A stretch of 64,000 bases of DNA from Maylandia zebra. Lineage: Eukaryota > Chordata > Actinopteri > Cichliformes > Cichlidae. A model generated the notes under the pieces. The model worked only from the letters and a program-made list of their open reading frames with translations, did no database searches and had not been told where the DNA came from. The position numbers and the translations under genes are program-made. This document shows, in pieces, positions 51,448 through 54,400 of this stretch. The stretch spans positions 13,831,852-13,895,851 of the forward strand of contig NC_135169.1 in NCBI RefSeq assembly GCF_041146795.1. The letters run 5' to 3'. Each line of letters begins with the position of its first letter. Position 1 is the stretch's first letter.

Positions 51448-54400
51448 CTGAGGATGAAGCACATTAGTCGCGTCGTTCAGTTTCAGTAAACATGCAGCGT
51501 TTTTGAAATATTAAAGCTGCATTTAGATTTTCTGGCCACAAGGGGGCGATGTAGCTCCTGATAGCTAAAGCAGTGAGAATCATAAAAATGATCTAATGTC
51601 GGCTCACTTTTTATAAAATCACTGTGAACGGTTTTACATTTTGTGCCGTCGTTAATCTGCAGCCAGTTTAAGTTTCGGCTCTTACGGGATTGTCGTTCTT
51701 CAGAGAGATCCGGATGTCTCCGTGGATCCGGTGTAGCGTCGAGTCCGTCAGCGTCACCGTCGAGCGCTTCTTCTGCTGCTCCTGTACCGGGTTACCTTCT
51801 CCTCCAGCGCTCTTCTCCACTGCTGCTGACGTCTCGGGTCGGCTCGCTCCGTCACTTTCCTTCTCCTCGCCGGTCTTCCTCTGCCCGCCCGGCTCCGCGC
51901 CTTCACATTTCTTCTCGCCCGTTGTTTTTTGCGTTTTGTGTTTTTCTGCATTTTCCGCCTTTTTTGGTTTCTCCGCCTCGTCCTTCTTCTTTTCTTCACC
52001 CTCCTGTTCTTTTCTTCTTGCTGCTGCTGCTTCCCCCTCCTCCTTGCGCTCCTCGTTTTTCTTCGCAGCCTCCGTCACGCTCTTGGCTTTTTTCTCCTCC
52101 GCTTGAGTTCTTTCAGATTTCATCTGGACCTCGATGCTTTTCTTCGAGCTCCCATCATCCGACTTCTCTTTTTCTTCAGCGCCCTTCTTCTTCTCTTTCT
52201 CCAAACTTCTTTTCTTTTCCACCTTCTCCTCTGTCTTCTTCTCCCCCTCCTTTGCAGATGTTCCTCCCACCTTCTCCTCTTCCCTCACGGTCATTCCTCC
52301 CATCATCGTCTTCACCTGGACCTTCGGACCCTGCCCAGCTGTTGCCTTGACAATCTTTCCAATTATTTTTCTCTCCTCCTTCTTTTCTTCATCAGTCTTC
52401 TTCTCCTCCTCCTTTTCCTTTGTCTTCAGCTCCACATCTCGACTTTTCTCCAACTTTTCTTCTACCTGCATCTTCTGCGATGTCCTGCCGTTCCCCTTCT
52501 TGGCTCCTTCCTTCTTCTTCTCTGATGTTTTCTTGGCTGAGGCTGACTCCTTCGCACTCCTCCACTCTGACCTTGTCGGGCTTCCTGTCCTCCTCCTCTT
52601 CGCTCCGTCGCCGCCTCTCCTGATGAGAAAACAGACAGAGGTTTAAACTCCTGACTGATTTTACCGTATCATTTTTTTCCCCTTCCTCTTACAGAGCGCT
52701 CCTCGTTGCCTCCCTCCTCCTCCCTCCTCTCCCGGCCTTCAGCAGACCCCTCAGAGACTTTAACACGCTCTCCCTCTTGGCGGCCAGGTGGCGCTGTCGC
52801 TGCAGGAGAAATGTTGAGACGTTTTCATCCTTCTCTTCAATTTAAAACATTTCCTTAATGAAGACAGACTCTACCTCATCGTCTGGAGCAGCACCTCCTC
52901 TTTTCTCCCTCTCAGTTTTCTCCTTCTGCTTCTCTCCCTCAGATCTCCTCTCCCTCTTCTCCTCTTCCACCTTTTTCTTCTGCTCCTCTTCTCTTCTTAA
53001 ATCTTTCTTTGCTTCTATAACATCCTTCCTCGCCTTCTGCTGCACCTTCTTCACCTCCTTCTCTCTTCTTGACTGTTTCCTTTCATCTGAATCATCCTTC
53101 CTCATCTTCTGAAGTGCCTCCTTTTCTCTCGTCCTCCTCATTTCTTTGGGCTCCGGGCTGGTGTCTTTCCTTGTCGTCTCCTCTTCCACCTTCTGCTCCT
53201 CCTTCTCTCTTCCTAAATCTTTTTCTTCTGAATGATCGTTTCTCGTTTTCTGCTGCACCTCCTTTTCTCTTGTTTTCCTCGTTTCTCGGGCCTCTGTGCT
53301 CCTTTCTCTCCTTGTCTTCTCCTCTTCCAACTTCTTCGCCGCCTTTTCTCTTCCTAAATCTTTCCTTTTCTGTGAAGCATCCGTCCTCATCTTCCGAAGC
53401 GCCTCCTTTTCTCTTGTCCTCCTCGTTTCTCGGGCCTCACTGGTGTCCCTACTTATTTTCTCCTTTTCAACCACCTTCTCCTCCTCCTCCTCTGTTCTTA
53501 AATTTTTTTCTTCTGATGTGTCATTTCTCGTTTTCTGCTGCTCCTCCTTTTCTTTCGTCCTTCTCATTTCTCTGGCCTCCAGCCTCCTGTCTCTCCTCTT
53601 CTCCCCCTCTTCCTCCACCTCCTTACTCTTCACATCTTTCTTTTCCTCTGAAATATTCTTCCTCGCTTTCTTCTCCGCCTCTTTTTCTTTCATCCTCCTT
53701 GTTTCTTTGCCCTCTGTGCTCCTGTCTCTCTTCTGCTTCTCCTCCTCCTCCTCCTTCTCAGCTGGACTCGTCTTTACTCCTTCCTCCTCTGTTCCCTTTT
53801 CCTGTTCCTTGTGTCTTTTTGATGATCGTCTCTCCATCGTTGCCTTTTCCTCGCTGCTGTCCTGACTTTTCTTCTGCACCTCCCCTTCGCTCTTCCTCTT
53901 GACTCCTCGGGCCTCTTCTTTTTCTCCTTCCTCTTTCTCATTCGTTTTCCTCTGGACCACCTCCTCATCGTTTTTCTTCTCTCTTCTCTTCTTGACTCCT
54001 TTGTCATCTTCCTTCTCCTTCCCCTCATCCACCTTCTTCTCGTCCTCCTCGTCCTTCCTCCTCTTCACTCCTCGGCCCTCTTTCTTCTGCTCCTCCCTCT
54101 CATCTCTCCTTGTCCTTACTCTTCTGCTGTCTTCCTTTTCCTCCTCCTTCTTCTCCACCTTCTCTTCATTTCGGCGCTTGAAGTCTCTGCTCTCTTTCTT
54201 TTCCTCCTCCTCCTCCTCCTCCCTCCTTCCACCGGTCGTCATCAGAGCAGGTTCCATCTTCTGCAGCTTCACATTGATCTGACGGAGACGAGGAAAACAT
54301 GAAACTTTATTCAAAAGCTGAAAAGACAAAATGAGAAAAAGAAGTTTAACATGTGTCTCTGTTGCTTAGCAACGCATCAGATTAGCAGAGGGTCTGAATC

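What the first reader, a model, noticed from the sequence alone, without database searches (positions are those of the whole stretch)
53034..53729. A-B-A-B higher-order tandem repeat inside a psip1 coding exon
Five units of about 132-146 bp (46-48 residues) lie in frame in one 1404-bp exon. Two unit types alternate: one has QQKTRND and SEEK, the other ALxKMRxD and SxxRK, giving a dimer period of about 284-288 bp. All keep [17 protein letters not shown] cores. This means at least one duplication of a dimer and points to recent minisatellite-like growth of the LEDGF hinge, making the protein over twice the usual length. Variable unit number between individuals or species is likely.
Basis: partly seen in the sequence, partly recalled or inferred. 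Interest (0 to 1): 0.78.

Follow-up and report, generated by a model that had tools for sequence, protein, structure and literature searches.

The report
Repeat-built hinge in second fish LEDGF
One exon of a fish gene related to the human chromatin-tether protein LEDGF is built largely from in-frame copies of a ~47-amino-acid charged segment; the copies are real but old, and scraps of them also sit in a jumping element elsewhere in the same genome.

Summary
Exon 52875-54278 (minus strand, 1404 bp) carries five in-frame units at 53046-53729, spaced 135-144 bp, with a 285-bp dimer period. Its best self-match (75/90) exceeds all 300 codon shuffles. Corrections: alternation covers units 2-5 only and is mosaic; a partial unit follows, and a second repeat family lies in the exon's 5' half. 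'Recent' and 'likely variable' are not supported: units are 66-80% identical, dimer Ks about 0.35. The same genome has a canonical psip1 with AT-hook-like motifs and small exons on contig C6, so this is a divergent second psip1 with a ~1012-aa hinge (human ~255); the array gives 30-38% of the extra length. Best explanation: in-frame unequal exchange built a charged, probably helical spacer between PWWP and IBD. Unexpectedly, a young LTR retrotransposon copy on C23 carries pieces of units 4 and 1 joined in register, at a place where a sibling copy encodes the integrase core. The join was made in the gene or during reverse transcription; which, cannot be told. Transcription, function and polymorphism are untested.

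The parts
52875..54278 (-). Repeat-bearing hinge exon (e6), 1404 bp, 468 codons, phase 0/0
   Evidence: Acceptor TCCTCGTCTCCGTCAG|ATC, donor GAG|GTAGAG; joins in phase with flanking exons. Best 13-nt pyrimidine content before a YAG inside the exon 0.46, against 0.69-1.0 at the nine predicted acceptors.
53595..53729 (-). Unit U1 (45 aa), neither A nor B type
53454..53594 (-). Unit U2 (47 aa), B type (QQKTRND, SEEK)
53310..53453 (-). Unit U3 (48 aa), A type ([13 protein letters not shown])
53172..53309 (-). Unit U4 (46 aa), B type; shares a one-codon deletion with U2
53046..53171 (-). Unit U5 (42 aa), A type; the predicted helix is broken at its start (SPEPK)
52956..53045 (-). Partial unit U6 (30 aa), lacks the ETRRTREKE core
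   Evidence: 72-bp TRF row
52875..52955 (-). Possible vestige of a seventh unit / end of exon
   Evidence: likeness by eye only (RERRSEGEK)
53860..54218 (-). Second, degenerate repeat family in the 5' half of the exon ([12 protein letters not shown])
   Evidence: Family D2, 5 copies of 80 nt, spacings 93, 72, 51, 63; shuffles of the exon's first 549 nt
57161..57606 (-). Exons e1-e3: PWWP domain
   Evidence: PF00855 E 1.3e-14; best PDB hit LEDGF PWWP 2m16
50741..52619 (-). Exons e8-e10: second charged hinge exon and integrase-binding domain
   Evidence: PF11467 E 1.9e-28; best PDB hits human PSIP1
55850..56326 (-). Exon e4: TPAK/Ala-Pro-Lys-rich hinge segment
   Evidence: 24-bp TRF row 56199-56244

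Best explanation
The region is an old in-frame tandem array in the hinge of a divergent second psip1/LEDGF gene of a fish. A ~47-codon purine-rich unit was multiplied by unequal exchange or slippage; a B-A pair was then probably duplicated as a block, with later partial homogenisation of U3 and U4. The frame was kept while individual residues drifted. The product most likely serves as a long, highly charged, largely helical spacer between the chromatin-reading PWWP domain and the partner-binding IBD, in place of the short AT-hook hinge that the canonical paralogue keeps. Shown: repeat structure, frame, dimer period, a gene model by in-phase splice sites, the paralogue. Inferred: exchange as the mechanism in the gene, helix (prediction only), spacer function, and that the host is a fish (gene content and genome size; no name was given).
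For: Repeat and shuffles. The four spacings are multiples of three, and no stop arose where about 7.5 would be expected without constraint (P about 6e-4; tree, stop chance, computed). Ten exons join in phase to 1255 codons with PWWP and IBD. The canonical psip1 on C6 has small exons and AT-hook-like RGRKKK/RRGRKPK; the AT-hook patterns searched are absent from the window protein. AF2 predicts helices 190-366 and 379-460 over the array, ten-residue pLDDT means 70-91 except 46-66 at its first two blocks, 55-64 around the start of U5 and 49 in the exon's last eight residues; the longest helix is 64 aa in the exon's own first part and 66 aa in the charged control exon e8. Unit exchange: the C23 retrotransposon copy joins U4 (89/91) to U1 (88/90) in register, 132 nt apart.
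Against: Ka/Ks between dimers is 0.71 with an interval including 1 (0.36-1.46); by unit pair 0.38 (0.16-0.99) for U2-U4 but 1.48 (0.53-5.52) for U3-U5. Only 17 of 88 amino-acid differences in five chosen unit pairs keep the charge class, against 24% by random mutation, so beyond frame there is no sign that residues matter. Opposite-charge i,i+3/i,i+4 pairing in the array is not above shuffles (z 1.1) while that of the control exon e8 is (z 3.5). Single-sequence AF2 tends to make helix of Lys/Glu-rich stretches (recalled). Trees against a dimer duplication are not all rejected. The C23 join may have arisen during reverse transcription. No transcript was seen, and no relative's genome was available.
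Confidence: 0.6

Rival explanations
1. Recent, still slipping coding minisatellite with unit number varying between individuals.
For: Tandem units in frame, dimer period; a U4-U1 recombinant exists on C23.
Against: Units are 66-80% identical at nt level, the dimer copies 79%, Ks 0.35. The C23 copy shows U1 and U4 were already distinct when captured (each piece about 98% identical to its own unit; next best place 71/91 and 69/90).
Confidence: 0.1
2. Neutral growth: low-complexity purine-rich DNA expanded in a tolerant disordered linker, with no selected function beyond not breaking the frame.
For: Ka/Ks interval includes 1 and charge class is not conserved. Coding-strand purine content is 83.0%, above synonymous resampling (79.6 +/- 0.6%), and Arg codons are AGR in 61/69 against 36/56 in the rest of the gene (units are not independent).
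Against: Frame kept and no stops; predicted helix longer than in the exon's first part or in exon e8.
Confidence: 0.3
3. The A-B alternation is not a dimer duplication but convergence or gene conversion among independently duplicated monomers.
For: U3-U4 is as similar as U2-U4; three trees with U3+U4 are not rejected (AU p 0.08-0.21); conflicting sites are clustered (p 0.054).
Against: Best tree pairs U2+U4 and U3+U5; bootstrap 88 for U3+U5 and 64 for U2+U4, shared codon deletion; the 285-bp period outscores 141 bp.
Confidence: 0.25

Closest known systems
Human PSIP1/LEDGF p75 (530 aa chain)
   Same: N-terminal PWWP, C-terminal IBD with LVGEG; charged hinge between
   Different: Hinge about 1012 aa against about 255; the AT-hook and RRGRKRK patterns searched were not found (human NLS and AT-hook-like motifs from passages of PMC10854676, their letters recalled); hinge mostly in three long exons, one tandemly repeated
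Canonical psip1 of the same genome (contig C6, L017/L018)
   Same: PWWP and IBD; 40/64 identical over the stretch of two IBD exons compared
   Different: Small hinge exons, AT-hook-like motifs, no TRF row at score 60 in the 13.5 kb read; its hinge was not fully modelled
Protein tandem repeats (PMC3995336, abstract and section 17)
   Same: Tandem in-frame units of tens of residues, old rather than recent
   Different: Higher-order dimer period and two repeat families in one exon
Charged single-alpha-helix spacers (recalled)
   Same: E/K/R-rich, long predicted helix
   Different: No excess of opposite-charge pairs at i,i+3/i,i+4; not shown by experiment

Membership tests
PSIP1/LEDGF family | N-terminal PWWP domain | tested here: met
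   PF00855 54.9 bits over cut-off 25.6
PSIP1/LEDGF family | Integrase-binding domain | tested here: met
   PF11467 98.9 bits over cut-off 26.3. PSIP1 is the best PDB hit (113.6 bits) and HRP2 the last of 23 (75.2), but over the same span a short PSIP1 construct scores only 80.4, so the lead over HRP2 is small there
PSIP1/LEDGF family | AT-hook-like motifs in the hinge | tested here: not met
   No RGRP, RGRK, GRP, KRGR or PRGR in the 1255-aa model; RGRKKK and RRGRKPK in the C6 paralogue. Not taken as defining of the family (HRP2-type members differ, recalled); it marks divergence
PSIP1/LEDGF family | Binds methylated H3K36 nucleosomes and IBD partners | not testable with these tools
   no experiment
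Minisatellite (VNTR) | Near-identical units | tested here: not met
   66-80% between U1-U5
Minisatellite (VNTR) | Unit number varies between individuals | not testable with these tools
   one assembly only
Charged single alpha helix | Long helix of E/K/R | tested here: inconclusive
   AF2 helix 190-366; control exon longest 66 aa; single sequences only
Charged single alpha helix | Opposite-charge i,i+3/i,i+4 pattern | tested here: not met
   z 1.1 against shuffles; exon e8 z 3.5

The most novel reading that the evidence does not exclude
After gene duplication one fish psip1 gave up its DNA-hooking hinge for a recombining, unit-built helical arm, so that the reach between nucleosome and bound partner became a quantity evolution can change in ~47-residue steps. 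The same repeats recombine readily enough, as DNA or RNA, that a Gypsy-like element carries a unit 4-unit 1 recombinant in place of its integrase core.
Probability: 0.2. Interest if true: 0.65.

Novelty: new variant of a known kind. Interest (0 to 1): 0.42.

Why it matters
LEDGF links transcribed chromatin to MLL, other partners and lentiviral integrase. A paralogue with a hinge about four times longer, built partly from countable units and without the AT-hook motifs searched, is a natural length experiment beside a sister gene of ordinary plan in one genome. The C23 element is a physical record of an in-register join between two units of this array. The finding as first posed (a young, variable minisatellite) would be more striking than what the sequence supports.

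Tried and rejected
Rejected as unlikely: internal splicing of the exon (no pyrimidine-rich acceptor inside). The donor test there says little: AG|GTRAG does not occur inside, but three GTRAG do, and most of the predicted donors, e6's own included, do not fit that pattern either. Rejected: array derived from the retrotransposon. Of four siblings fetched, three (L034-L036) span the site and have 610 bp of other sequence there; the one stretch scanned, from L034, holds integrase H2C2 and rve. In the fourth (L037) the match to the element ends before the site. Rejected: a retrotransposon-LEDGF fusion protein; the upstream ORF reaches a stop at the junction and the psip1 piece lies in another frame. 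Not borne out: charge-class conservation and salt-bridge pattern. Led nowhere: PDB (up to E 1) and Pfam with the repeat exon, 0 hits; PDB with a chance ORF; Rfam on the window at gathering scores, 0. Nine paper searches, seen as capped listings, showed no title on this array; no wider claim is made. The C2 68-bp match was fetched (L021) but not analysed. Of 41 element matches (54 candidates, 40 scored), four siblings were fetched. My first reading, that this was the only psip1, fell; paralogues were sought by the IBD profile only, as the PWWP search did not complete.

Full report
What is there. On the minus strand the window holds a psip1-family gene whose ten predicted exons join in phase to 1255 codons without a stop: e1-e3 (57161-57606) encode the PWWP domain, then e4 55850-56326, e5 54513-54689, e6 52875-54278, e7 52693-52799, e8 51686-52619, e9 51346-51447, e10 50741-51020, with the integrase-binding domain split over e8-e10. 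Exon ends were chosen by eye from splice sites and phase. Pfam gives PWWP (1.3e-14) and LEDGF (1.9e-28); the closest solved structures are human PSIP1, though over a shared short span HRP2 is only about 5 bits behind (75.2 against 80.4). The repeat exon has no Pfam or PDB match. If the last donor is not used, the frame stops a few codons after e10.

The repeat. defines U1-U5 at 53046-53729 and a partial U6, on DNA without gaps, gives spacings of 141, 141, 144 and 135. The 285-bp TRF row outscores the 141-bp row (713 against 513). The best 90-nt self-match is 75/90 at offset 285, against maxima of 0.667 in 300 codon shuffles and 0.678 in 300 shuffles within 30-codon blocks. So the array is not an effect of Lys/Glu/Arg composition. 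A second family of shorter units lies at 53860-54218, and 0 of 500 codon shuffles of the exon's first 549 nt reach its self-match of 62/90.

A-B-A-B. U2 and U4 share QQKTRND/SEEK and a codon deletion; U3 and U5 share ALxKMRxD/SxxRK; U1 fits neither. Identities are 0.797 (U2-U4) and 0.789 (U3-U5), but also 0.800 (U3-U4). Informative sites among U2-U5, on a hand-set alignment, are 8 for ABAB, 5 for U3+U4 and 1 for U2+U3. Seven of the 8 ABAB sites lie in the middle of the unit and four of the 5 U3+U4 sites towards its start (runs test p 0.054, the single U2+U3 site left out). Of 15 topologies the ABAB tree is best; seven are rejected by AU at 0.05, the three with U3+U4 are not (AU p 0.17, 0.08, 0.21), nor those with only one of the two pairs (the program warned that replicates were few for AU). 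Bootstrap is 88 for U3+U5 and 64 for U2+U4. A dimer duplication followed by partial homogenisation of U3 and U4 fits this, without being forced by it.

Age and constraint. Dimer against dimer: 87 codons, Ks 0.345 (0.18-0.58), Ka 0.245, Ka/Ks 0.71 (0.36-1.46); U2-U4 alone 0.38 (0.16-0.99), U3-U5 alone 1.48 (0.53-5.52). With recalled vertebrate rates of about 2-8e-9 per site and year this is tens of millions of years; gene conversion would make it look younger than it is. Frame constraint is visible: spacings are multiples of three, and about 134 substitutions on the unit tree at a 5.6% chance of a stop predict 7.5 stops, none seen. Residue constraint is not: 17 of 88 differences (five chosen unit pairs, not independent) keep the charge class, against 24% at random.

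Which gene. A search of the whole genome with the LEDGF profile found five matches on three contigs, all 11 candidates scored: this gene on C3, and C6 and C22. The C6 gene has human-like small exons, AT-hook-like RGRKKK and RRGRKPK, and an IBD exon reading LVGEG...LNKSLAEQRQHEEA, which the human chain shares: it is the canonical psip1. C22 looks like hdgfl2/HRP2 (by eye, not tested). The window gene is thus a divergent second psip1; that it stems from the teleost genome duplication is inference. The AT-hook patterns searched are absent from it. Its hinge is 1012 residues against about 255 in the human chain (residues 91-345, from the match ends). The array (228 aa for U1-U5, 285 to the exon's end) is 30-38% of the difference.

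Structure. AF2 without an alignment predicts helices 18-81, 93-135, 145-152, 190-366 and 379-460 of the exon product, mean pLDDT 71.9. The control, most of exon e8 (310 aa), gives mean pLDDT 62.4 and a longest helix of 66. Helix propensity agrees (85% of 15-aa windows of the array below 0.45 kcal; 60% in the exon's first part, 48% in e8), but the charge pattern does not exceed shuffles (z 1.1), whereas that of e8 does (z 3.5). I read this as probable helix, unproven.

The same units elsewhere. Searching the whole genome with the exon's protein gave three matches, itself and two overlapping ones at C23:934539-934775 (91 of 1261 candidates scored). That stretch lies in an LTR retrotransposon copy (L004): LTRs of 623 bp with 2 differences, TGTT...AACA ends, and GATGGT on both sides, one of them at the end of a GGAT repeat. 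Pfam finds SCAN in the first ORF, and integrase C-terminal domain before RT and RNase H in the second; SCAN is reported for Gmr1 Gypsy elements in frogs (PMC4131045, passages), and the integrase-first order is recalled as typical of them. The copy carries 89/91 identical bases of U4 joined to 88/90 of U1, 132 nt apart and in frame with each other, then 184 bp of a dispersed repeat found in many other places, and a 160-bp inverted repeat around the patch. In three of four siblings fetched the site holds 610 bp of other sequence; in L034 this encodes integrase H2C2 and rve core. A DNA search with the fragment gave seven matches: two at this locus, four in the psip1 exon, and one of 68 bp on C2 not followed up, so the patch looks single-copy. 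It reads like a template-switching patchwork made in reverse transcription. The U4-U1 join could have been made then, or already existed in a psip1 allele; these cannot be told apart here. The pieces differ from psip1 by about 2%, the LTRs from each other by 0.3%, so capture may precede this insertion. That a fragment of the integrase-tether gene stands in an integrase gene is probably coincidence, since the upstream ORF stops at the junction.

Verdict. A real, old, in-frame higher-order repeat in a remodelled hinge of a second psip1. Interesting as a natural length variant; not shown to be the recent variable minisatellite proposed.

Noticed in passing
L004 3185-3784 (G000:C23 934184-934783): A young LTR retrotransposon copy (LTRs 2/623 different) carries psip1 unit 4 and unit 1 pieces joined in register, a piece of another dispersed repeat and an inverted copy of its own sequence, where a sibling encodes integrase H2C2 and core.
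   Followed up: yes
L017 4447-9586 (G000:C6 21178946-21184085): Canonical psip1 with AT-hook-like motifs and small hinge exons in the same genome; its hinge was not fully modelled.
   Followed up: partly
window 55850-56326: Exon e4 is TPAK/Ala-Pro-Lys-rich, reminiscent of linker-histone tails (recalled), with a short 24-bp tandem repeat; it may take over DNA binding from the missing AT hooks.
   Followed up: no
window 52875-54278: The exon's coding strand is 83% purine, more than codon usage of the rest of the gene predicts, with Arg codons AGR in 61/69.
   Followed up: partly
window about 50154-50378 and 55391-55534: Simple TA-type and T-rich repeats beside the gene.
   Followed up: no
L021 (G000:C2:29366139-29366206): A 68-bp stretch 79% identical to the C23 fragment; may be chance in purine-rich DNA.
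   Followed up: no
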